DNA from: a virus
IMG/VR virus record: IMGVR_UViG_3300027763_000236
Location: 1-24,303 of that record
Reading direction: 5' to 3' (one strand)
Length of the DNA: 24,303 nt
This document shows, piece after piece, positions 1-14,748 of the stretch; the stretch's first letter is position 1, and each line of letters begins with the position of its first letter. The notes under the pieces were generated by a model, which did no database searches, was not told where the DNA came from, and worked only from the letters and a program-made list of their open reading frames with translations. A program made the translations under genes and the position numbers.

Positions 1-467
1 GATGTTACTGACTCAATAACATCTCCTGGAATTGCAATATTAGCGTACTCTGAACCCCAGCGTGTTAATAAATTCTGCCCATAAATCTCGTGCCATACAA
101 CCCACATCTTCGGGTCATTTTCAAATGCATCACGTTGTTCTAGAATCCAGTTGAATCCCATAACCTGTGAATCAAACTCTACCCAGCCTTCAATACGGTC
201 ATAATTTAACGCTACGAATTCCTCGTAATCGGCTGCGTATTCTTCCAATTCCATCTTTGACAGATTGGCTTTGTCTACTTGGACTGCACCTGAATCTACC
301 CATACTTTCATATTAGGTAGGAAATGCTCTCCAATTAGGTATGGCTTTGTTTTTGGTAACCCACGCTTACGCAGGCCCCAGTAATTTAGGATAACGTGTT
401 CAACTCCGTTGCGTTCTAATAGTGTCCGATTACTTGGAATCTCTACCCCGCCAAATATTAGCTTCAT
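1..467 (-). CDS. tRNA-guanine transglycosylase-fold protein, DpdA-like (C-terminus outside window)
   Basis: Partial gene. Translation from the ATG at 467 gives 155 residues and stays open to the window edge. Residues 55-63 read VWVDSGAVQ, close to the DSGGFQ active-site motif of tRNA-guanine transglycosylases (TGT), where the Asp handles the base. A later WVEFDS (about 95-100) and an IAIPGD strand end (about 144-149) fall where TIM-barrel TGTs have 'imaFDe' and 'iGGLavGE'. Phage relatives of this fold, the DpdA proteins, insert 7-deazaguanine bases into DNA, so DNA base exchange is the preferred inference; a tRNA enzyme is the alternative. The catalytic nucleophile Asp lies in the missing half and cannot be checked. 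The start overlaps the stop of the HAD-like gene (ATGA), suggesting coupled translation. The family call is moderate, the substrate unknown. Confidence 0.6.
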   Translation of the reverse strand, partial: MKLIFGGVEIPSNRTLLERNGVEHVILNYWGLRKRGLPKTKPYLIGEHFLPNMKVWVDSGAVQVDKANLSKMELEEYAADYEEFVALNYDRIEGWVEFDSQVMGFNWILEQRDAFENDPKMWVVWHEIYGQNLLTRWGSEYANIAIPGDVIESVT

Positions 468-949
468 TCGAAATTTAAACCTTCTGTGCGCAGCAACCTG
501 GCATCTTTTGTACGCAATTCATTTTGTTTGTTTATTGAATCTTCAATATCATTCCATGACCTAATGGATTTAGGTGCATCCGGCCTAAATTCTACACGGG
601 TATAACTTGGCACGCCAAACATTACACTGGGAATGCCCATGTTAAATCCATATGCCCACATCTTTGGGTTATTGGTTATAAATAAATCTATTGGTCCTTT
701 GGCTCTTGCAACATTAACCTGGCGTTCCGCTAAAACTTCACCTTCCAGGTGAACCGATGAGTCTAATATCCTGTCGTAATCAACAATCTTATTGACATCT
801 AACCAATATTTAATCTCATTCTCTGGCTTTGAATCCATGAATGTTACTACGTTCCAGCTGCTGAGGCTTCCAACCATAATGACCCCAGTTGCAATTGGTT
901 CATCTTTTTGACCGCGTAATACTCCGTCTATATCTACTAATATATGCAT
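464..949 (-). CDS. HAD-superfamily hydrolase-like protein
   Basis: This 161-residue protein starts MHILVDIDGVLRG, the DxDG motif I of the HAD superfamily, in which the first Asp (D6) is the phosphoryl-accepting nucleophile and the second (D8) the acid/base. A 'FITNN' segment (about 90-94) fits motif II with its Thr, and GIPSVMFGVP (about 105-114) resembles the following Rossmannoid strand. HAD enzymes of this size are mostly phosphatases acting on nucleotides, sugars or 5'/3' nucleic acid ends; no cap domain for substrate choice is evident. The start shares bases with the stop of the upstream Cys-rich microprotein (TGATG) and its stop overlaps the TGT-like gene, so these read as one translationally coupled set. 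The fold call is fairly firm and the substrate is unknown. Confidence 0.7.
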   Translation of the reverse strand: MHILVDIDGVLRGQKDEPIATGVIMVGSLSSWNVVTFMDSKPENEIKYWLDVNKIVDYDRILDSSVHLEGEVLAERQVNVARAKGPIDLFITNNPKMWAYGFNMGIPSVMFGVPSYTRVEFRPDAPKSIRSWNDIEDSINKQNELRTKDARLLRTEGLNFE

Positions 950-1059
950 CAGTCTTCCTCAAACATTGTTCCGTAACAATCACATTTGCATTGGTCTTCT
1001 ACGCAAATACCTTGGTATAACTCATGCGCACACAGGCGGCATGTATCTGTTAATGACAT
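949..1059 (-). CDS. 36-aa cysteine-rich microprotein, probable zinc knuckle
   Basis: A short frame fills the gap between the nucleotidyltransferase-like and HAD-like genes. It begins with an ATG that overlaps the upstream TAA (TAATG) and ends in a TGA overlapping the next ATG (TGATG). The 36 residues contain six cysteines: CRLC near the N-terminus, then GICVEDQCKCDC. That spacing suits one small zinc site, with extra cysteines left over. The tight double overlap and cysteine density argue that it is a real gene despite its size. No family is recognised. It may be a small nucleic-acid-binding or protein-binding adaptor for the neighbouring enzymes, which is inference only. Confidence 0.6.
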   Translation of the reverse strand: MSLTDTCRLCAHELYQGICVEDQCKCDCYGTMFEED

Positions 1060-1940
1060 TATTGGTTCCTGTGTACTGCTGCTCTGCGAATCAGTGTTCT
1101 AGCATCAGGCAATTCTACTCCATAAGGATTGTTATTTTGTAGGGTGTTTTTCATATTTTCCCTAACTTTTCTTAGGGATTGAATTGCACCGCTACGCTTA
1201 CCAGCTTGCCAACGGTAATTGTGGAAATCATTGTACCCCTCTCCGCTTCCGGAGAATGCTAATGACCTATTGCTATGAATTTCATTATATAGGGAGTTTC
1301 CTTGGGCTGCTGCAATTGTTAAATTGTTTTCTGCATTACGTCTGATTGCATCATTACGAGAATACTTTATATCCTGCATTGATGTTGTAAACTTGTTTTC
1401 GATACCGGATGCTGTGTGTAAATCCGTATCAACAATCTTATCCCATTCGTTATTAGATGGGGCGGCTTGGTTTGGGTCTGGTGTAACTATCCACTCACCG
1501 TATTTTAAATCATACGCGGCATATGGTTTGATATTACGAATGTCGGCTGTAACTAACGCATAAAAGGTTAATTCAAACCCATTCCAGTTTTGTGTGGTTA
1601 CTTGCAACTCATCATGGAACTGCTCGTTTAATTGGTCAGAAATCTCTTTGTCTGACAACCCTGCGTAGTTGTTATTTGCTTTACGAAACTGAATAAAATT
1701 AATACCGATTAAACAATCCAGGTCTTTTGGGTCTCTAGCTGCATTCCATTGATATGAAACACCTGAACCTGCTAGATATGGGTGTGTCCATAACTGCGCT
1801 TCTTGGTATTTTCTACCTAGGAAATCGTTTAATATGCTTAGAATACCAGAACGCACCCACGACTGGAGTGAACGCCCATTAAATAGGGTAGGGTCCAACT
1901 CGGTCGCAGGTGCGCTGAAATAAGATGTAGGATTGCTCAT
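1059..1940 (-). CDS. Probable nucleotidyltransferase-fold protein
   Basis: This protein has 293 residues. A GSG (about 58-60) followed by a segment ending DPKDLDCLIGI (about 70-80) matches the nucleotidyltransferase signature: a Gly-Ser turn, then an Asp-x-Asp metal pair in a hydrophobic strand. A downstream strand, YALVTADIRN (about 127-136), could supply the third acidic residue. Pol-beta-type nucleotidyltransferases move NMP groups onto RNA, proteins or small molecules. The C-terminal third is rich in Asn, Arg and Ser and looks helical (about 195-285), perhaps a binding domain. The gene lies upstream of the Cys-rich microprotein, HAD-like and TGT-like genes in one overlapping run, suggesting a shared nucleotide or nucleic-acid role. 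The fold is inferred by eye from one motif. Confidence 0.45.
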   Translation of the reverse strand: MSNPTSYFSAPATELDPTLFNGRSLQSWVRSGILSILNDFLGRKYQEAQLWTHPYLAGSGVSYQWNAARDPKDLDCLIGINFIQFRKANNNYAGLSDKEISDQLNEQFHDELQVTTQNWNGFELTFYALVTADIRNIKPYAAYDLKYGEWIVTPDPNQAAPSNNEWDKIVDTDLHTASGIENKFTTSMQDIKYSRNDAIRRNAENNLTIAAAQGNSLYNEIHSNRSLAFSGSGEGYNDFHNYRWQAGKRSGAIQSLRKVRENMKNTLQNNNPYGVELPDARTLIRRAAVHRNQ

Positions 1941-1949
1941 ATATCTAGT

Positions 1950-2255
1950 TTAAGCGGTTGCTTCAGGGCTTTCTGGCTTAATTCCACGCTCTGCAAGCTT
2001 TTCGCTAATAACATCGGATACTGTAGGTTCTACTGGTGGAGTTAGCAACTGAATAATAGTTGTTGCTAGACGCTCAACCAAACGCTGGTCATCTACTTCT
2101 TTAATTAGTAGGTGTGCCCATTGATAGACTTCAGAAACAGTTGCGTCTTGCTGTGTTTCTGGCGCATCTTCTTGTTTTGCTAGGTCAACAGAAAATGTGT
2201 CATCTGTATAGATGTTAACAACGAATTTTGATTTAATTTCTTTATTTTGTTCCAT
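1950..2255 (-). CDS. Hypothetical acidic protein, 101 aa
   Basis: No family is recognised. This 101-residue acidic protein has a predicted beta N-terminus (KSKFVVNIYTDDTFSVDL) followed by a Gln/Asp/Thr linker and a helical middle (about 42-75, containing WAHLLIKEVDDQRLVERL). The C-terminal stretch (about 73-101) is Pro/Glu-rich. The start is preceded by AGAAAGAAAT, a weak purine-rich ribosome-binding site. The first codons (MEQN) and the bases around the start are identical to those of the gene at 2984, an 18-base match. It lies between the 183-aa Cys-rich protein and the nucleotidyltransferase-like gene. Function unknown. Confidence 0.7.
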   Translation of the reverse strand: MEQNKEIKSKFVVNIYTDDTFSVDLAKQEDAPETQQDATVSEVYQWAHLLIKEVDDQRLVERLATTIIQLLTPPVEPTVSDVISEKLAERGIKPESPEATA

Positions 2256-2266: not shown

Positions 2267-2818
2267 CTAATATAGGCCAAGGATTTGGCGTTTACGTTCT
2301 AACACTTTACCATGGTACGGACAGAAATGGCAAGTGTATACTTGAGGACCTTCCAGATGTTCTGGTTTAGGCATTCCCAATTCTTTACGTTCTACCGCTG
2401 TATCCGGCAACAAACGCTTTTTAGGTGATTCATAATCTTCACAATTGGTTGTGATTTTATTATGTGCAATCCAGCAATTCATGGCATCTTCAGCAAATGA
2501 CATCTTTGTTTCATAAAATGCTTTATTAGGGTCTAACTCATCTAGACCTTTTGAACCACCCTGAGCTAGCTGTTCTAAGATGGCTTTCTTTTCTTCGGGG
2601 TTTGCCCATGATTTTACTGGTACTTTAAATAGTTTACCTACGTGAGGGTCACCTGATGGAAATACGTGCTTTTCTAGCGTAATCTCCAATAAATAATCAA
2701 ATTTAGATGGTCCTTCAAAATCAGGAAGTTCTTCCCAGGTTTCGCACACCATGCAGCGTAGCAAACGGATGATTGGTCCATCGATAGGTTTAGAACCAAT
2801 TACTGGTTTATTAGTCAT
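2267..2818 (-). CDS. Hypothetical protein with CxxC and CxxCxxH metal-site motifs
   Basis: This 183-residue protein carries one cysteine pair near the N-terminus (CMVC, about 22-25) and a second group near the C-terminus (CHFCPYH, about 163-169). The two could fold together into one split zinc site, or the second alone could be a CCH knuckle. Between them lies a mostly helical, charged region with one more cysteine at about 126. Length and layout match no family I can name. The gene overlaps the end of the 57-aa gene upstream (2811-2818). Its product may bind nucleic acid or act as a structural adaptor, but the sequence does not settle this. Confidence 0.7.
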   Translation of the reverse strand: MTNKPVIGSKPIDGPIIRLLRCMVCETWEELPDFEGPSKFDYLLEITLEKHVFPSGDPHVGKLFKVPVKSWANPEEKKAILEQLAQGGSKGLDELDPNKAFYETKMSFAEDAMNCWIAHNKITTNCEDYESPKKRLLPDTAVERKELGMPKPEHLEGPQVYTCHFCPYHGKVLERKRQILGLY

Positions 2819-3044: not shown

Positions 3045-4859
3045 TTAACGACCTTCTGAGGCACCTAAATTAAGGGCATCAGACCTTGATACAGGGTTAC
3101 CTTGAGCTGCTTGGCGTGTTCTAAACTCTTCTGATGGCGCGGGTATAACTGGATTACCATACAGGGTTGGTAGCTGTGTTGGCACAACTCTTTTAGGAAC
3201 TAATCCACGTTTAACCGCATTTTTGTAATCTCTTTCCCTTTGTGGTTTAACTACAAAATGGTCATTAAAAATGCTGTGAATTTGGTCTGGGTGCTTTTCT
3301 AAATCACCCATTGTGCTTAGGTGGTCTTCGCCTGAATCAGAAATTGCTTGGTGCAGGTTATCCGCTACCCATTTTTTAGACTCTTCTGGGTTTTCTTTTG
3401 CGTAATTAGACGCAGCAAGTTCTTTTTCTGGTCTGTCTTCTCCACTAAATCTTTTGAAATTATACTTTTTAAATAATTCAACGTGGTGTTTTTCAATAGC
3501 GGTATTATAACCAGTTGGGTTTTCTGCTGCTTCGTGTGCTGCAAGAATACTGCGAGGCAGTACTGGCATTTCAACATCATCCCCACCCATAATTTCTTTA
3601 TGATTTGCGTAGTATTCTTTAGCTTGGGCTACATCCTTAGCTGAAGGACGCCAATTGGTCGGCTTATCAAATGTTTGAATTACTTGCCCTGTTTCAGGAT
3701 GCTTATAAAAAGTTCCAATAGAATCAACACTTGAGCCTTTTACTACTCCAAACTTCCCATTGTTGTTAGTTCGTTTCCATGTGTCAGTAGTTTTAGTGTG
3801 TGCTTGTACAGACTCACCTGCAATATAGTGGTACTTACCCGGAACTGTCCTAAAACTATCTGCTAAAACTTCTTGATTTGGACCAAAAGTTTTAGTTTCT
3901 CTATCTATAGGAAATTGTTTGCCATTATTGCTTTGTTTTATAGGAGTTAGTTTAACTTCTCCAGTAATTTCGTTGTGTTCAACCCCATGACTGTGAGGAA
4001 GAGCATCATCAACACCAACACGGTCCAAAACATCCTGACCAATATTTTTCTCTGGTCTTGTTACAGTTACATTTGGGTTAACTTCTTTTGGAAGTTCGGG
4101 TGTAGATTTAACGGCAGGAGGAAGTAAATCTGCTTCAGTTGGTTGGAGCATTCTTGATTTCAAATATTCTTCTGCTGTTAGCACTGTTCTACGCCCACCG
4201 CTCGATGCTTCACGAGCTTGTTGCTGTTGTTTTGCTAACTGAGAACGATTGTTAATTTGTTTTGGAGTAAAATACGGTTCAGTTTTTGTTTCACCTGGTA
4301 CTGCAGAAAGGCCCCCCATAATTGGCCTTCCTGATTCCATGCGATTTACAAAAGGCTTACCTTCTTCATCTGTTCCCAAAGAAATGCTAGATGCAATTTG
4401 ACGAGGTTCAAATGATACGCTTTGGGATTGTACAACTCCTGCTGGACCGTACTTTTCTTTATCTGCTGTTCTAGCCGCTGCAGCCGCTGCTCTTCCTGGT
4501 TTTGGTACAGCTTTTTCATTATTTAATAAATTTTTATTTAAAACACCAAGTTTACGAGCTAAATCAGTTGGGTTAAATCTTATTGCAGGGCTAGCAGCTG
4601 CAGCTGGAGCAACATCTGATTCTGCTGGATTTAATGGCTCCCATTTAGATGAGTCAATGTTTTCTAATTTTGCTTTTTCTTCAGCTTCACGTTTAGCCTG
4701 AATAAGCTTACTGGCATTATCATCGCTACTATCCATGATAGGAGTAGCCATTGGCTGGTTTTTAGTACCAGTTCTTGGCCCACGAGTCTTTTTTTCTGCA
4801 GGAGCAGCGGAAAATTCTACTGCAGGGGCTGGACCTTTTGCGGGTTTATTTGAAGGCAT
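3045..4859 (-). CDS. Large hydrophilic, largely disordered protein, 604 aa
   Basis: This is the third of three very large hydrophilic proteins encoded in sequence. The first 130 residues are Ala/Pro/Lys-rich with an AAAAAA run, typical of disorder. The middle (about 140-340) is rich in Gln, Ser, Thr and Pro with no obvious fold. A more ordered stretch (about 345-550) contains Trp, Tyr and His residues (for example FGVVKGSSVDSIGTFYKHP and ILAAHEAAENPTGYNT). The C-terminus (NPVSRSDALNLGASEGR) is again polar. No signal peptide, membrane segment or catalytic motif is visible. Its ribosome-binding site is weak (AAGAAAG). It may be an internal virion, scaffold-like or injected protein, by analogy of size and composition only. 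No family is recognised. Confidence 0.75.
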   Translation of the reverse strand: MPSNKPAKGPAPAVEFSAAPAEKKTRGPRTGTKNQPMATPIMDSSDDNASKLIQAKREAEEKAKLENIDSSKWEPLNPAESDVAPAAAASPAIRFNPTDLARKLGVLNKNLLNNEKAVPKPGRAAAAAARTADKEKYGPAGVVQSQSVSFEPRQIASSISLGTDEEGKPFVNRMESGRPIMGGLSAVPGETKTEPYFTPKQINNRSQLAKQQQQAREASSGGRRTVLTAEEYLKSRMLQPTEADLLPPAVKSTPELPKEVNPNVTVTRPEKNIGQDVLDRVGVDDALPHSHGVEHNEITGEVKLTPIKQSNNGKQFPIDRETKTFGPNQEVLADSFRTVPGKYHYIAGESVQAHTKTTDTWKRTNNNGKFGVVKGSSVDSIGTFYKHPETGQVIQTFDKPTNWRPSAKDVAQAKEYYANHKEIMGGDDVEMPVLPRSILAAHEAAENPTGYNTAIEKHHVELFKKYNFKRFSGEDRPEKELAASNYAKENPEESKKWVADNLHQAISDSGEDHLSTMGDLEKHPDQIHSIFNDHFVVKPQRERDYKNAVKRGLVPKRVVPTQLPTLYGNPVIPAPSEEFRTRQAAQGNPVSRSDALNLGASEGR

Positions 4860-4879
4860 TATAATACTTTCTTTATTAA

Positions 4880-5092
4880 CTACTTACCAGGGTTTACTTG
4901 AGATGATGCTGGGGCCTCTGAAGTAAGGAATCCATAACCTGAGAATGGGTGTAGAAGTTGACGGTTATCTAGGGTCTTTTCGTGACCATCGTGGTCCATA
5001 ACCTCAGTGTTAGGGCGAACCTTGCGGTACTTGCCATCAGTTGCACCAGCATCTAAGCTATCGTTCATTGAACGACTAGTGTTTACTGCCAT
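4880..5092 (-). CDS. Hypothetical small protein, 70 aa
   Basis: The frame is open further upstream, but I place the start at the ATG at 5092 (MAVNTSRSMND). It is preceded by GAAGGAAG about six bases away, and the longer form would overlap the upstream gene much more. From 5092 the overlap is only 17 bases. The 70-residue product is polar and Gly/Asp/Asn-rich, ending with GYGFLTSEAPASSQVNPGK. No domain is recognised. Its composition resembles the other small proteins of this block (9.4-11.2 kb), so it may belong to the same structure or function. Confidence 0.65.
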   Translation of the reverse strand: MAVNTSRSMNDSLDAGATDGKYRKVRPNTEVMDHDGHEKTLDNRQLLHPFSGYGFLTSEAPASSQVNPGK

Positions 5093-5462
5093 TTTTTCTT
5101 CCTTCGTTAATATCGTTCGCATAGTTATGTACGAACTCTTTTTGCTGCTCACCCATTTGGGCTTGCAAAATCTGTGTAGTCAATGGATAGTCAACACGTT
5201 GACCCATCTCATCCCTAATATCAAATGCCTTGGCTGCTTGATTAATATGGTGGCCTACATCTGATAGTTCTAGCATAGCAGCTGTTTGGCCGCCTGGGGT
5301 GTTATGCGCTTTTTGAGCGTTAGTTAGCCCCTTTAGAGCGTTGCCTAAATGCACGTTAATCTTATCTACGTTGTCGTAGCCTAACCCATGACGGTTTGAA
5401 TCTGCATACTCTATCATATGAGATATTAGCTCATGAGCATCGTTAAATGATGGGTGTGACAT
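5076..5462 (-). CDS. Helical protein sharing a hairpin segment with the 610- and 637-aa proteins, 128 aa
   Basis: This 128-residue, His- and Ala-rich, probably all-helical protein has a central segment at about 36-80 (LGNALKGLTNAQKAH, then HHINQAAKAF). It lines up with segments of the 637-aa protein (about 172-215) and the 610-aa protein (about 195-238). The common pattern is a helix ending in A..AH, a Gly-containing turn, then a helix with A.....H(I/V)..A. The shared piece suggests a common ancestor or common binding partner. The gene overlaps its upstream neighbour by one base (stop/start) and its downstream one by 17. No database family is recognised. A small structural or assembly protein is a reasonable guess. 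Confidence 0.7.
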   Translation of the reverse strand: MSHPSFNDAHELISHMIEYADSNRHGLGYDNVDKINVHLGNALKGLTNAQKAHNTPGGQTAAMLELSDVGHHINQAAKAFDIRDEMGQRVDYPLTTQILQAQMGEQQKEFVHNYANDINEGRKNGSKH

Positions 5463-5665
5463 TAGACCATTTTTCTGTTGATACGGTCCTGGCGGCGCTT
5501 TTCACCGCAATCAGGGCAAATACCTAACTTAGTGTACATATATTCTACCGGGTTCATAATTATACCACATGCTGGGCATGGGTGAGAACCACGGTAGTTT
5601 ATTGCATTCTTTGCTACTTGGTATGCTTGAAGTTCAAGCGTAAGTGCGCCATCGCCGTCATCCAT
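5462..5665 (-). CDS. Small zinc-ribbon protein, 67 aa
   Basis: This 67-residue protein contains two CxxC knuckles, CPACG (about 30-34) and CPDCG (about 50-54), separated by 16 residues. This is the classic layout of a zinc ribbon that binds one zinc ion. A helical acidic N-terminus and a basic C-terminal tail (KRRQDRINRK) flank the ribbon; the basic tail could contact nucleic acid. Starts and stops overlap both neighbours by single bases, so translation is coupled to the 637-aa protein upstream and the 128-aa protein downstream. The partner is unknown. Confidence 0.75.
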   Translation of the reverse strand: MDDGDGALTLELQAYQVAKNAINYRGSHPCPACGIIMNPVEYMYTKLGICPDCGEKRRQDRINRKMV

Positions 5666-7578
5666 TACATACCTCTTCCAGAATTAAACGCGCTGTTTCT
5701 GCGTCCCATTGTTTGCTGTACAAATTCATCAACTCTAGCTTGAGAAGTTAACGCAGGTTCTTCATTATATTCATGGTGTTCTACTAGAGCATTTGAACGG
5801 TCAGTAGCTTCTTCAGGAGCTCCAGAAACGTTAAATGAACCAAAAGTAGATAAGTGTTTGTTTTGTTCTTCCGGAGTTAAGTCGCCAAATCTTACCTTAA
5901 TGGTTTTGTTTTCATCTGTAGGGTGAGGCATAGTGACCATACTATTTACCATAGAAGACCTAGTTTCCTCTTTTGTAAGAGGTATACCGGCACGTTTAGC
6001 TCTTGCCTGTTGATTCCTGTTAATATTTTCCGGAACATCGAGACCGGGGTGTGGTTGGCCTCTACCAATTCTTGCAACTTCAGGTAACCCAGATTCAACT
6101 TCAGCTATATTAGCTGTTCTTTCTTCATTAAGTGTTGGGTTAAACCCAGTCATCCCGGTTTGTCTTGCCCATTTAGCATAAGGCTTTGGAATTTCTCGGA
6201 ACTCTAATTTATGTTTTGTTGCATAACCTTCTGGGTCAATATGGCCTTCAGTTCCTTCAAACTCATGTGGATTTGCACCTTTGTTAGTTCTTAACCAGTG
6301 CTGTTTAACTTGGAATTGTTGATTCCATTTTTCTGGGTCAGTGTGAGCCTCTGAGCCAATAAACGTTTTAGGTACATAATCTTTAATTCCAGCGTTTTTG
6401 GCCGAACTTTCGTTAATTGCCTCATCACGTTCAAATACTGGTTGAATCTCTTCTCTTTTCCATCTAATATCAAATGGAACTGGATTACCGGTTCTAGGTG
6501 CAGATTCTACAGCTTCTTCGGAACCAGATAGCCCTGAATCATCTGCTCTAATAATATTTCTACCACCGCGTGTTGCTCGTTCTATATCTGATGCTTTAAG
6601 TCTAGCTTGAGCTCTTGCAGTTTTTTGTTCTCGTTCTTTCTTTACATCTTCTCTAGATTTAGTTCTATACCAATCCGGAATTGTAGCTGCGGTATTTGAT
6701 TCCCCTGCTCTTGTTAACTTTGTATAATTTCTAGTAACTTCAGGTACAACAGCCTCTGCTATTTCAGGGTGAAGAGCACCAGATGTAATGCCTCGTTCAA
6801 GAACATGCTTTGTATAACCATTAACAACATTTGAAATTTGCCTATTAGAGTGTCCTCCAATTGCCATTTCGTTATTATCAGCGGCGTAATCTTGACTGTT
6901 AAACACTTTGCTATATTTTTGAGTACCAAAGTTCTCTTTTGCTGTATTTAAAGCAGATATTACGTGGTCACCTGCTTGTGAGAATAAATCCATAGCAGAA
7001 ATGTGGTCACCTGCGCGGTGAGCCTGTTCTGCTAAATCAAGTTTGCTTTTAGCTTGGTTTAATGCCCAAACTGGTCCATCTATTTTTTTCTGTAGGTCAG
7101 TAGGAATTCCTGCTTGGGTTCTGCGACCTTTTTCATCTGTATAGTTATCTAGAGTAACTTTTTGAGTGTCAGGTGTTGCTGCATTTTTTGCGTCAACTTT
7201 TAATTGTAGTCCTTTTTCTTTAGTTGTAATAGCATCATTTTTAATGGCATCTACACGACCACGAATATCGGCTATTGCATTATATAAAGCATGGTGGTAA
7301 GTAAGGTTAGAACTAATTCCAGTCGATTCTACAGGTCGTGCAGTTGCATTCCAGTCGGCTGGTTGCTTTAATTTACCAGTTTCAAGTCTTCCAAGAAATT
7401 CTTCATCGGCCTGTTTTTGTAGTTCTCTTTTTTGTACGGCTTCTTGTACTGCAGATATTTTTCGGTCTTCACGAGCAGTGGCACGTGCGTCAGCTTTACT
7501 TTCGGAGTTCCTAGCTTTGAGAATAGCGTCTTTTCTAGCCTGCTGCTCAGCAGTAAGTTTTCTTCCTTGTCTTGCCAT
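5665..7578 (-). CDS. Large hydrophilic, helical/disordered protein, 637 aa
   Basis: The first 75 residues are Lys/Arg/Glu/Ala-rich and look like a coiled coil. Residues 95-215 are helical, ending in the hairpin (about 172-215, QAKSKLDLAEQAHRAGDH) shared with the 128-aa and 610-aa neighbours. Residues 300-345 are another basic helix. The remainder is polar, with several His/Pro-rich patches. Near the C-terminus (593-612) the sequence DRSNALVEHHEYNEEPAL closely matches residues 261-278 of the 610-aa protein (DRAHALVEHPVPNEISAL). No enzyme motif, signal peptide or membrane segment is visible. It is a likely paralogue, at least in part, of the upstream 610-aa protein. Function unknown; virion-internal or scaffold-like by composition only. 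Confidence 0.75.
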   Translation of the reverse strand: MARQGRKLTAEQQARKDAILKARNSESKADARATAREDRKISAVQEAVQKRELQKQADEEFLGRLETGKLKQPADWNATARPVESTGISSNLTYHHALYNAIADIRGRVDAIKNDAITTKEKGLQLKVDAKNAATPDTQKVTLDNYTDEKGRRTQAGIPTDLQKKIDGPVWALNQAKSKLDLAEQAHRAGDHISAMDLFSQAGDHVISALNTAKENFGTQKYSKVFNSQDYAADNNEMAIGGHSNRQISNVVNGYTKHVLERGITSGALHPEIAEAVVPEVTRNYTKLTRAGESNTAATIPDWYRTKSREDVKKEREQKTARAQARLKASDIERATRGGRNIIRADDSGLSGSEEAVESAPRTGNPVPFDIRWKREEIQPVFERDEAINESSAKNAGIKDYVPKTFIGSEAHTDPEKWNQQFQVKQHWLRTNKGANPHEFEGTEGHIDPEGYATKHKLEFREIPKPYAKWARQTGMTGFNPTLNEERTANIAEVESGLPEVARIGRGQPHPGLDVPENINRNQQARAKRAGIPLTKEETRSSMVNSMVTMPHPTDENKTIKVRFGDLTPEEQNKHLSTFGSFNVSGAPEEATDRSNALVEHHEYNEEPALTSQARVDEFVQQTMGRRNSAFNSGRGM

Positions 7579-9410
7579 TAGCTATTACCCTTTGCTTTCT
7601 TTTTTGGTTCAACTGTAGGCTCAGTTGCAGTTATGCCAAGTTTGTCCATATATTGTTTTTCAATTTTTGCTAGACGAGCCTTCTTTGGTGAACGACTAGT
7701 AACTGGCTTGTTTCGTTTTGCTTCTTCTTTTTTAGCTCTACCAGTAGACATAATTTCAAAAGCTTTGTCTTTATCTGCTTCAATTTGAGCCTGAGTTTCT
7801 TTTATGAGAGCTTCTCTGTCTTCTACTGCTTTTTGTCCACGAGTTGTTAATGCTTCACGCTCTACTGAACGCATAGTATCCCAATTACGAGGCTTTTCTG
7901 GGGCTGCATCTTCTGGTTTAGGGGCGTTAGGGTGTGAAGGTGCAGGCGTGACATCTTCGTAGCCTATAGTGCGTGCTCCAGCTCCCCTTAGTTGTTCAAA
8001 AGTTAGTGGCACACCTTTTTCATTTAAGTGCGGAACGTGCATACCTTGGTCGTTAATTACTTTCATACCATAGTGTTGTCCATATGGCACAATTTTTACG
8101 TCTTCTAACTTAGGCATCTTAAGTTGTTTACCTAGAGGGTCAAAAGCAGCAAGTTGTCCTTCTACTGCAGTTCCTTTTTTACCTCGCATAATCTTTGTAC
8201 CTGCAGGAAGTGCATTAGGGTGTACATATACCATAGGAATAGTTTTAGGATTTGTTACTGCACGTGTTCCTGGAGCAATTCCTTTACGTACTGGTTTTGT
8301 TTCACCTACACGAGATGTTCCTTCGTTTGCATCAACATCAAAACCTTCTACGTGAGTATACGGTCCTGCGTTCAGTGCATCCCACTCAGGTCCACCTTTT
8401 TCAGTTCCTTGGGTAGACTGTTTTAGTTTATATTTAACTAATTGAGGGTTTAGGCCCATATATTTTGCACGTTTAGCAGGGTCTGGGTGATTAAGTGCAC
8501 TATTAATTTCTGAAAGTCTTTCAAAAACAAATCTATTATTATCGATGTTTGTTCTTCCAAGTTTTAATCCCTTAGAAAGAGCAGAAATCTCATTTGGTAC
8601 TGGGTGTTCAACTAATGCGTGAGCACGGTCAATATCAGTTGATGACAATGGGACAGGTGAACGCTTACCGCCCATACTAGCCCAATATTCAGGGTTACTC
8701 ATAGATTGGTTAGCCATGTGAAGAGAATTAGTAGCCATTCTTACGTGTACAGTAGCTTCATGAGGTTTACCATTATCTAAAGCAGCATGAGCTCTTTGTA
8801 AAGCTGCTTCAGTAACTGCTAGATGCATACCAATTTGTTGGTGAGCTTCTCTTGCAGGATGAAGAGGGTCATTTTCAACAGTTGTTTTAAGGTCATTCCA
8901 ATGGTCTGTAAGAATTTTAAAGTTAGATTGGGTATCGTTTATAATTGGACGTAGCTTTTTAGTGGCTGCAAATGCGCCGGGAAAAGGCATATTTTTTCTA
9001 AGTTTATCCTCATATTCAGAACCAGCATCAGACACCCCACTTAAAGGCTTCATTAATTCTTCTTTAGACAGCTTTTGTCTTGGTTGGTCGGTAGGGGCAG
9101 CAGCAAGAGTTCTATTACCGTGAATATCTGAGTTTACACCAACAACTAACCCACCTTTATTAATGTGTGCCCACATCTGGCTCTTTTTTTCAAACTGCTC
9201 TGGAAGTCTAAGTCCAGGCTTTAGGTCAATTATTCCTGATGAAGCTGGCTTAGCTGCAGATTCTTTTTCTACAGCTTCTAGTTCTGGAGACTTTACCCAA
9301 CCACTTGAAGTATCAGAAGCAGCAGAAGATGACTGTTCTGTCGAGTTTTCTCCATTTACAGGAGTGCCTCCAGCTCCGCCGTGGCCTTTACCAAATTCTT
9401 CTAGACTCAT
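7578..9410 (-). CDS. Large hydrophilic protein, 610 aa, paralogous segments with the 637-aa protein
   Basis: The N-terminus (1-60) is Gly/Ser/Ala-rich and disordered. A helical region (about 145-240) contains the shared hairpin (about 195-238, VTEAALQRAHAALDNGK), followed at 261-278 by DRAHALVEHPVPNEISAL, also shared with the 637-aa protein. Residues about 370-480 look more beta-like and ordered (RAVTNPKTIPMVYVHPNAL, then MKVINDQGMHVPHLNEKG). The last 120 residues are a charged Lys/Glu helix with a basic tail. Start and stop overlap both neighbours by one base. No known family is recognised. Size, order and internal similarity suggest it and its neighbours act together. Confidence 0.75.
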   Translation of the reverse strand: MSLEEFGKGHGGAGGTPVNGENSTEQSSSAASDTSSGWVKSPELEAVEKESAAKPASSGIIDLKPGLRLPEQFEKKSQMWAHINKGGLVVGVNSDIHGNRTLAAAPTDQPRQKLSKEELMKPLSGVSDAGSEYEDKLRKNMPFPGAFAATKKLRPIINDTQSNFKILTDHWNDLKTTVENDPLHPAREAHQQIGMHLAVTEAALQRAHAALDNGKPHEATVHVRMATNSLHMANQSMSNPEYWASMGGKRSPVPLSSTDIDRAHALVEHPVPNEISALSKGLKLGRTNIDNNRFVFERLSEINSALNHPDPAKRAKYMGLNPQLVKYKLKQSTQGTEKGGPEWDALNAGPYTHVEGFDVDANEGTSRVGETKPVRKGIAPGTRAVTNPKTIPMVYVHPNALPAGTKIMRGKKGTAVEGQLAAFDPLGKQLKMPKLEDVKIVPYGQHYGMKVINDQGMHVPHLNEKGVPLTFEQLRGAGARTIGYEDVTPAPSHPNAPKPEDAAPEKPRNWDTMRSVEREALTTRGQKAVEDREALIKETQAQIEADKDKAFEIMSTGRAKKEEAKRNKPVTSRSPKKARLAKIEKQYMDKLGITATEPTVEPKKKAKGNS

Positions 9411-11256: not shown

Positions 11257-11550
11257 TTAACTTGCTGAAATTGCGAATACTATTGCAGAGATTTCGCCAT
11301 CTCTTGATTCAATAGTAGTAAATCCAGGCTTGCATGTCAGGTCTAAACCCCTTGGGGCTACGTAGCCTCTAGCGATTGCGATTGATTTTACAGCCTGGTT
11401 GACTGCACCTGCGCCTACGGCCCTTAGCTTTACAGCTTTAGTTTCGTAAATAGCGTGTGCAATTGCCGATGCAACTGATTGTGGGTTTGACCCAGCTGAA
11501 ACTCGAAGAAACGGTTCTTCGGTAGATGGGATGTCTAATTCTTCACTCAT
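11257..11550 (-). CDS. spoVS: SpoVS-family protein
   Basis: This 97-residue protein matches the stage V sporulation protein S family across nearly its full length. It has FLRVSAGSNPQSVASAIAHA at the N-terminus, the hallmark VGAGAVNQAVKSIAIARGYV in the middle (about 45-64), and APRGLDLTCKPGFTTI followed by a final beta strand. The family is a small Alba-like alpha/beta fold thought to bind nucleic acid; in Bacillus, SpoVS affects sporulation and septation. About 14 extra acidic residues precede the domain. A phage copy may bind nucleic acid or tune host development; the sequence does not show which. It sits alone after a 55-base gap downstream of the RuvC-like gene, at the boundary between replication genes and the unknown block. 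Confidence 0.93.
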   Translation of the reverse strand: MSEELDIPSTEEPFLRVSAGSNPQSVASAIAHAIYETKAVKLRAVGAGAVNQAVKSIAIARGYVAPRGLDLTCKPGFTTIESRDGEISAIVFAISAS

Positions 11551-11605: not shown

Positions 11606-12175
11606 TTACTGTATAAAATCCCTGTATTTGTCATCTTTTATTTGTTCTACAATTTGAGCTTCTATAGCGTTAATATTGCTTCCGCCAGCTAATCTAGCTA
11701 AGGCATAGGCATCAGCGGCGTTATCGTCATTGAATTCAACGCCCCAACGCTTGTACATTTGTAGGAGCATCTCTTGTTTCTTAGAGGTCCCCTTGCCTGT
11801 AGCATACTTTTTAAGAGTCATTGGGGGGATTTGAAGAGGAAGAATTTCTTTATTCCATAAAGTTAATTTAACTGTTGCTGCTAGCTCACCTAATACTAAG
11901 GCGGAATGGGATGCTAAAACAGTGCCTTCCATGGCGACATCTTTGACGTCCCATCGATTTAAAGCAATTTCAAATAACTGCTTATTTAACCAAGTTTGTA
12001 TGTCAGCTAAACGCTGAACACCTCGGTACTCGGATTTTGCAACCCAAGTCATATGCAGATTAGGGAACTCAACAGAAACCACCGAGAGAGCGAACCCTGT
12101 TAGTGATTGGTCAATACCTATTGTTACTTCTTGGCTGCCTATTTTGAGGCCTCCATCGAATTCCTTAATCTTCAT
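11606..12175 (-). CDS. RuvC-like Holliday junction resolvase
   Basis: This 189-residue protein has the RNase H-fold layout of RuvC-type resolvases. The first strand, VTIGIDQSLTGFAL, contains D22; AMEGT carries E83; and the C-terminal NDDNAADAYALA helix contains D150/D151 and D155. These give the acidic residues that bind two metal ions for symmetric cutting of four-way junctions. The basic patch TLKKYATGKGTSKKQ (about 120-134) is typical of the DNA-contacting loop. In phages such enzymes debranch replicated DNA before packaging. It lies just downstream of a PD-(D/E)XK nuclease gene. The family call is strong; true junction specificity is inferred. Confidence 0.88.
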   Translation of the reverse strand: MKIKEFDGGLKIGSQEVTIGIDQSLTGFALSVVSVEFPNLHMTWVAKSEYRGVQRLADIQTWLNKQLFEIALNRWDVKDVAMEGTVLASHSALVLGELAATVKLTLWNKEILPLQIPPMTLKKYATGKGTSKKQEMLLQMYKRWGVEFNDDNAADAYALARLAGGSNINAIEAQIVEQIKDDKYRDFIQ

Positions 12176-14406: not shown

Positions 14407-14748
14407 TTACTTTTCCTTCTTATTTAGTTGAAAGACATATTCTTTCAAAGTCATACTATCTTTATACTGCCTTTGCCACTTTCGCACAAGTGCATTGCGC
14501 TCACGGTGACTTAGACCGCCCCAGATTCCATGTTGCTCATCTGATTCTATTGCAGACCACAGACATTCTTTTCGTACTGGACAAGCCGGAGTCTCTCCGT
14601 CAATTCCAAAACAATACTTCTTTGCTTCATCTGCAATTGATTTATAAAGGTCTTTATCTCTTGGTGGAAAAAATATATCAGGGTCTGGTACATCTTTGCA
14701 AGCGGAATCATTAATCCACTCTAAATCTGTAACGTTAAACATTTCCAT
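14407..14748 (-). CDS. WhiB-like Fe-S transcription factor
   Basis: This 113-residue protein has the WhiB family layout. An N-terminal ACKDVPDPDIFFPP carries C17, a cysteine group (C46, C56, C62) ends in CPVRKECLWSAIE, the GIWGG turn lies at 74-78, and a basic HRERNALVRKWQRQ helix follows for DNA contact. WhiB proteins hold a 4Fe-4S cluster and act with the primary sigma factor; they are essentially actinobacterial, and phage versions can alter host transcription. Here the second and third cysteines are nine residues apart instead of the usual two, with an inserted FGIDGETPA loop. The gene lies between two nuclease genes and overlaps the upstream one by 14 bases, with a weak ribosome-binding site. 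Confidence 0.9.
   Translation of the reverse strand: MEMFNVTDLEWINDSACKDVPDPDIFFPPRDKDLYKSIADEAKKYCFGIDGETPACPVRKECLWSAIESDEQHGIWGGLSHRERNALVRKWQRQYKDSMTLKEYVFQLNKKEK

What the first reader, a model, noticed from the sequence alone, without database searches (positions are those of the whole stretch)
1..1940. Candidate nucleic-acid modification cassette: NTase-like, Cys-rich microprotein, HAD-like, TGT/DpdA-like
Four overlapping genes combine a nucleotidyltransferase-like fold, a six-cysteine 36-aa protein, a HAD-type phosphatase and a protein with the TGT-type DSGAVQ motif. TGT-fold DpdA proteins exchange bases in phage DNA. The strict overlaps imply joint function, and I know no described system with exactly this set.
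Basis: partly seen in the sequence, partly recalled or inferred. Interest (0 to 1): 0.6.

Follow-up and report, generated by a model that had tools for sequence, protein, structure and literature searches.

The report
Phage gene trio with disabled base-swapper
A set of three neighbouring genes shared by a large family of phages of soil and freshwater actinobacteria holds a relative of the enzyme that swaps guanine for modified bases in phage DNA, but with its key catalytic residue replaced in every full-length relative examined, beside an apparently working nucleotide-transferring enzyme, so the "DNA-modifying enzyme" label now in databases is probably wrong.

Summary
The four overlapping minus-strand genes are real. 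The last one (TGT-like) is cut off by the window edge after 155 residues. Its closest full-length relative (489 aa, 92% identical over those 155) is a DpdA/TGT-type barrel fused to a four-cysteine module. The nucleophile Asp of DpdA/TGT is missing: Ser, Ala or Thr stand there in all 111 distinct sequences examined, never Asp. No queuosine/preQ0 genes (queC, queD, queE, folE) were found in 16 long genomes. The "HAD phosphatase" has no profile support, and its would-be nucleophile is Asp in only 17 of 93 sequences. The NTase-like protein keeps G58, S59, D73, D75 and E123 in 93 of 93. The Cys protein is a conserved but accessory gene. The NTase–HAD-like–TGT-like trio is core in relatives of Streptomyces phage BRock: 198 of 210 loci, 9 of 9 long contigs picked by terminase alone, and 6 actinobacterial genomes. 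Database records already label the TGT gene queuine tRNA-ribosyltransferase or dpdA-like. I reject a 7-deazaguanine modification cassette and propose a DpdA-derived pseudoenzyme acting as nucleic-acid-binding partner of an active nucleotidyltransferase; substrate unknown. One conserved acid (E/D204), absent from true DpdAs, leaves open a relocated active site.

The parts
1059..1940 (-). NTase-like protein, 293 aa; GS (58-59), DLD (73-75) and E123 form a Pol-beta-type nucleotidyltransferase motif
   Evidence: G58, S59, D73, D75, E123 invariant in 93/93 distinct relatives; AF2 model (pLDDT 85) places them on the beta strands expected of the NTase core; no Pfam/PHROG/PDB match
949..1059 (-). 36-aa Cys-rich microprotein, CX2CXHX6CX4CXCXC, probable metal binder; accessory
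   Evidence: pattern kept in 33/33 distinct relatives; detected in 90 of 210 loci; without it the NTase-HAD gap is about 4 nt
464..949 (-). HAD-like (Rossmann-like) protein, 161 aa, probably not a phosphatase
   Evidence: motif-I nucleophile position is S37 E34 D17 Q2 N2 A1 in 93 distinct relatives; no HAD profile hit
3..467 (-). N-terminal 155 aa of a TGT/DpdA-type barrel protein; the full-length relative is 489 aa with a C-terminal CX2CX5CX8C module
   Evidence: nucleophile position 192 lies beyond the window edge and is read from relatives
1950..2255 (-). 101-aa protein directly upstream, no known family; context only
2267..2818 (-). 183-aa protein upstream, homologue of BRock gp42 (35% identity); context only

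Best explanation
The trio is a core gene set of BRock-like actinophages. Shown by sequence: (1) the TGT-like protein descends from DpdA-type DNA-guanine transglycosylases, is fused to a four-Cys module, and has lost the Asp nucleophile needed for the covalent exchange intermediate, while the barrel stays under strong constraint; (2) the HAD-like partner lacks a conserved HAD nucleophile; (3) only the NTase-like protein keeps a full catalytic motif. Inferred: the TGT-like barrel is a non-catalytic nucleic-acid-binding or base-sensing subunit, comparable to QTRT2 in eukaryotic TGT, and presents DNA or RNA to the NTase, which does the chemistry by transferring a nucleotide to a nucleic-acid or protein target; the HAD-like and Cys proteins are structural. 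The target is unknown. My confidence is about 0.8 that the barrel does no DpdA-type base exchange and about 0.4 for the scaffold-plus-NTase model.
For: Fold and family: PHROG 887, hhalign 98.8% against nine phage DpdAs, Foldseek BFVD matches. Nucleophile lost: S101 A1 T1 in 103 distinct sequences, S or A in BRock and GiJojo, and A/S/T in six actinobacterial genome homologues, against Asp in every true DpdA compared; the same Asp aligns with IDS in the solved DNA-guanine transglycosylase 7UI4. In TGT, Asp280 makes the covalent bond and Asp102 assists; QTRT2 has lost both (PMC6165067). The Asp102-equivalent drifts to Glu in 47 of 103 and to Asn in L247. No TGT Pfam hit, QueC, QueD, radical SAM or FolE in 16 long records. 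NTase triad invariant. Core status: 198 of 210 loci, 9 of 9 contigs chosen by TerL, 6 actinobacterial genomes with BRock-type TerL. The C-terminal module matches a stand-alone companion gene of an intact DpdA.
Against: The window's own copy ends before the nucleophile position. Constraint on the pocket (E97, D99, T193, W196, G203, E204 at 102-103 of 103) is unusually strict for a pure scaffold. The NTase assignment has no profile or PDB fold match. Protein contact between the three is inferred from gene order only.
Confidence: 0.45

Rival explanations
1. An active 7-deazaguanine (DpdA-type) DNA modification cassette that uses preQ0 from the host.
For: True DpdA relation; phages with only DpdA exist, and Salmonella phage 7-11 carries trace dADG (PMC6884629); Streptomyces phage records label it dpdA-like.
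Against: Nucleophile Asp absent in all 111 sequences; no queC/queD/queE/folE; DpdA-only phage Orion had no modification (PMC6884629); the trio is core rather than a patchy add-on.
Confidence: 0.07
2. A transglycosylase or glycosidase with a relocated active site: the strictly conserved acid E/D204, absent from true DpdAs, replaces the lost nucleophile and supports altered chemistry on DNA or RNA.
For: E204 in 103/103 distinct sequences, Asp in BRock, GiJojo and six genome homologues, but T/A/Q/S/L in five DpdAs; the neighbouring pocket is very conserved.
Against: No structure of the pocket with substrate; position 192 drifts among Ser/Ala/Thr and the Asp102-equivalent among Asp/Glu/Asn, as in decayed active sites; the model C-terminus is poor.
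Confidence: 0.15
3. The TGT-like protein works in DNA packaging or end recognition, as an unusual small-terminase-like factor.
For: Its C-terminal Cys module is related to that of proteins annotated small terminase, encoded directly before TerL in Gordonia, Rhodococcus and Tsukamurella phages (hhalign score 42.8 against at most 18.8 in 30 shuffles); no other such module was found in BRock or in G001, a 94-kb relative; core gene.
Against: Far from TerL in BRock (16 kb against 88.5 kb); a conserved gene next to TerL (gp155) could be TerS; the N-terminal halves of those terminases are not TGT-like; the module is absent in three Streptomyces genome homologues; the same module accompanies intact DpdA.
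Confidence: 0.18
4. A tRNA-directed QTRT2-like subunit that recruits or blocks the host TGT.
For: QTRT2 precedent (PMC6165067); BRock has 29 tRNAs (PMC7453282).
Against: G001 encodes one tRNA only; the barrel is closer to DpdA than to tRNA TGT (no Pfam TGT hit).
Confidence: 0.1

Closest known systems
Streptomyces phage BRock gp39-gp38-gp36 (also GiJojo 178, 179, 181)
   Same: Same gene order NTase, HAD-like, TGT-like; 32%, 27% and 33% identity; same missing nucleophile; colinear surroundings
   Different: An extra low-complexity gene (gp37) between HAD-like and TGT-like; no Cys microprotein; annotated queuine tRNA-ribosyltransferase, hydrolase or hypothetical
Phage DpdA, DNA-guanine transglycosylase (phage 9g, Sonali, Bacteroides phage BS162P1)
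   Same: Barrel, DSG motif, conserved acid of the EFD motif
   Different: Nucleophile Asp replaced by Ser/Ala/Thr; an extra acid at 204; fused Cys module; no preQ0 genes
BS162P1_00088 and its homologue in L074, DpdA companion protein
   Same: C-terminal CX2CX5CX8C module and helices (probability 99%)
   Different: A separate gene next to an intact DpdA, QueC-like and QueE-like genes
Eukaryotic QTRT2 (non-catalytic TGT subunit)
   Same: TGT-fold protein with catalytic residues lost (PMC6165067)
   Different: No catalytic partner TGT found in these phages; unrelated lineage
Gordonia/Rhodococcus/Tsukamurella phage proteins annotated small terminase (phrog_6902, phrog_16015)
   Same: Related Cys module
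   Different: Different N-terminal half and next to TerL

Membership tests
DpdA / TGT | TGT-type barrel related to DpdA | tested here: met
DpdA / TGT | Asp nucleophile (Asp280 of Z. mobilis TGT) | tested here: not met
   Ser/Ala/Thr in 111/111 full-length relatives; beyond the edge in the window copy itself
DpdA / TGT | Second Asp (Asp102, DSG motif) | tested here: met
   D58 in the window; Glu in 47/103 relatives and Asn in L247
DpdA / TGT | TGT zinc site | tested here: inconclusive
   A four-Cys module exists but spaced CX2CX5CX8C and shared with other proteins; lost in L243, L245, L246
Phage 7-deazaguanine modification system | preQ0 genes queC/queD/queE/folE in the phage | tested here: not met
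   (the host could supply preQ0)
Phage 7-deazaguanine modification system | Modified bases in virion DNA | not testable with these tools
   needs LC-MS
HAD phosphatase | Motif-I Asp nucleophile (DxD) | tested here: not met
   Present in the window copy (DIDGV) but Asp in 17/93 relatives only
HAD phosphatase | Match to HAD profiles | tested here: not met
Pol-beta-type nucleotidyltransferase | hGS, DxD and third acid | tested here: met
   invariant in 93/93; strand placement in the model
Pol-beta-type nucleotidyltransferase | Profile or structural match | tested here: inconclusive
   none in Pfam, PHROGs, PDB sequence or Foldseek
Small terminase | Gene directly before TerL | tested here: not met
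Small terminase | Shared C-terminal module | tested here: met
   probability 89%, above 30 shuffles
BRock-like actinophages | Homologous TerL, portal and capsid and colinear gene blocks | tested here: met
   Relative G001 shares TerL 50%, portal 55% and capsid 58% identity with BRock; the window's replication block is colinear with BRock

The most novel reading that the evidence does not exclude
A core viral complex in which a DNA base-exchange enzyme fused to its companion module was rebuilt, with a new conserved acid (E/D204) in place of the lost Asp, and coupled to a nucleotidyltransferase, giving an undescribed nucleic-acid modification or end-marking chemistry common to a very abundant group of freshwater and soil actinophages.
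Probability: 0.15. Interest if true: 0.75.

Novelty: new variant of a known kind. Interest (0 to 1): 0.42.

Why it matters
It corrects a database label (queuine tRNA-ribosyltransferase, dpdA-like) now carried by these phages and by phrog_887. It defines a family of DpdA-derived probable pseudoenzymes that is core rather than optional in a large actinophage group. It links DpdA to a Cys module also seen in putative small terminases, so the companion gene of true DpdAs in Bacteroides phages becomes a testable part of DNA modification. BRock, a cultured lytic Streptomyces phage, makes every step testable.

Tried and rejected
Megablast of the window against phage records: none. PDB sequence searches with all three family profiles: none useful. 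Foldseek of the TGT model against PDB: generic TIM barrels only. Foldseek of the NTase model: helical chance matches. Idea that the N-terminal halves of Gordonia-type terminases are decayed TGT barrels: rejected, hhalign below 5%. Idea that another TGT or DpdA in the genome supplies catalysis: no TGT Pfam match in 16 records; a divergent DpdA missed by that model is not fully excluded. HAD phosphatase: rejected by conservation. A DpdA-only yardstick (phage Orion) could not be fetched. One DNA pattern search was uninformative. phmmer of a single phage DpdA against PDB found nothing, but the DpdA alignment reached 7UI4 weakly (E 0.0055).

Full report
What is there. The window is a 24,303-base virus record with nothing beyond its ends. 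On the minus strand four ORFs follow each other: 1059-1940 (293 aa), 949-1059 (36 aa), 464-949 (161 aa) and 3-467 (155 aa, cut by the edge), overlapping by 1, 1 and 4 bases. The window phage is a distant relative of Streptomyces phage BRock: helicase, primase, polymerase, RecA-like, Cas4-like, RuvC-like and SpoVS-like proteins match in the same order. No near-identical phage is in the collection.

The TGT-like protein. The fragment matches PHROG 887 'queuine tRNA-ribosyltransferase' at 2.5e-7. A relative 92% identical over these 155 residues (L002) gives the full length: 489 aa, E 1.8e-58. PHROG 887 appears to include BRock's own protein (E 2.3e-147), so I tested the family independently. hhalign of the N-terminal half against nine phage DpdAs gives probability 98.8%, E 7e-17. 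The AlphaFold model is confident for residues 1-265 only; Foldseek against viral models finds phage queuine tRNA-ribosyltransferases at 3e-9 to 1e-5, while PDB gives only generic barrels.

Catalysis. In bacterial TGT, Asp280 forms the covalent bond to the ribose and Asp102 assists; the eukaryotic QTRT2 subunit has lost both and is inactive (PMC6165067). All true phage DpdAs compared have Asp in the motif equivalent to xDSxxW, and it aligns with IDS of the solved DNA-guanine transglycosylase 7UI4, weakly but in register. In the present family this column is Ser 101, Ala 1, Thr 1 of 103 distinct sequences, Ser in BRock, Ala in GiJojo, and Ala, Ser or Thr in six homologues from Nonomuraea, Actinomadura and Streptomyces genomes: 111 of 111 without Asp. 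The Asp102 equivalent is Asp in the window but Glu in 47 of 103 and Asn in one genome homologue. D99 (EFD motif) and most of the pocket are invariant. E204 is invariant in 103, Asp in the more distant homologues, and non-acidic in the five DpdAs aligned; I note it as a possible relocated active residue, without proof. The window copy itself stops at residue 155, so its own nucleophile position is inferred from relatives.

C-terminal module. Residues 355-373 hold CX2CX5CX8C, four Cys in 103 of 103. The module matches BS162P1_00088, a separate gene of a Bacteroides phage lying beside an intact DpdA, a QueC-like and a QueE-like gene. The same arrangement is found in an IMG/VR contig (L074). It is also related to the C-terminal part of proteins annotated small terminase in Gordonia, Rhodococcus and Tsukamurella phages (hhalign score 42.8 against at most 18.8 in 30 shuffles); the N-terminal halves of those are not TGT-like. 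So the protein here looks like a fusion of a DpdA with its companion, later disabled. Three Streptomyces genome homologues lost the Cys.

The other genes. The NTase-like protein keeps GS, DLD and E123 in 93 of 93 sequences, and its model (pLDDT 85) puts them on the strands expected for the Pol-beta NTase core; no library or structure match supports it further. The HAD-like protein has DIDGV in the window, but the nucleophile is Ser 37, Glu 34, Asp 17 and others across 93 sequences, and no HAD profile matches; I do not call it a phosphatase. The Cys microprotein has its seven metal-ligand-type residues in 33 of 33 distinct sequences but was detected in only 90 of 210 loci and is absent in BRock.

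Distribution. NTase, HAD-like and TGT-like are found together in 198 of 210 loci. That count is biased by the way loci were found, so I selected contigs by terminase large subunit instead: all 9 contigs longer than 85 kb among the top 80 carry all three. Six actinobacterial genomes carry both the trio and a BRock-type TerL. The set is thus core, not an optional modification island. Sixteen long records lack TGT (Pfam), QueC, PTPS/QueD, radical SAM and FolE, while the control genomes ring. These records may be incomplete, but BRock is complete.

Interpretation. DpdA-type exchange is improbable (no nucleophile, no precursor genes, core status). Earlier work found DpdA-only phage Orion unmodified and 7-11 with traces only (PMC6884629). 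The most likely mechanism is a non-catalytic TGT-fold subunit that binds nucleic acid, working with an active nucleotidyltransferase and a HAD-like structural partner. The loss of catalytic residues and the conservation are shown; the complex, substrate and reaction are inferred. Rivals are packaging, a relocated active site and a tRNA role.

Novelty. The genes and the TGT label exist in GenBank records. I found no paper in the searched library describing this trio or a nucleophile-less DpdA family; that library is partial. I therefore rate it as a new variant of a known kind.

Noticed in passing
L055:8512-9267 and L074:3470-4165: A stand-alone four-Cys protein follows intact DpdA directly, between QueC-like and QueE-like genes, in a Bacteroides phage and an IMG/VR contig: an undescribed candidate DpdA partner.
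   Followed up: partly
L056, L057, L066-L073: The same kind of Cys module is the C-terminal part of, or a separate gene beside, proteins annotated small terminase directly before TerL in Gordonia, Rhodococcus and Tsukamurella phages.
   Followed up: partly
window 11257-11550 and 11606-12175: SpoVS-like protein next to a RuvC-like resolvase, conserved in BRock (53% and 38% identity); a SpoVS-like protein also lies near DpdA in L074.
   Followed up: no
window 3045-9410: Three long, low-complexity, probably disordered proteins (604, 637 and 610 aa) with no BRock match in the blastp comparison.
   Followed up: no
window 14407-14748: WhiB-like regulator, fitting an actinobacterial host.
   Followed up: no
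L242-L247: Nonomuraea, Streptomyces and Actinomadura genomes carry BRock-like gene blocks including the trio and TerL; two of the six TerL genes have an internal stop.
   Followed up: partly
L065:527-2400: Microbacterium phage Megan has two adjacent DpdA genes, both with the Asp motif.
   Followed up: no
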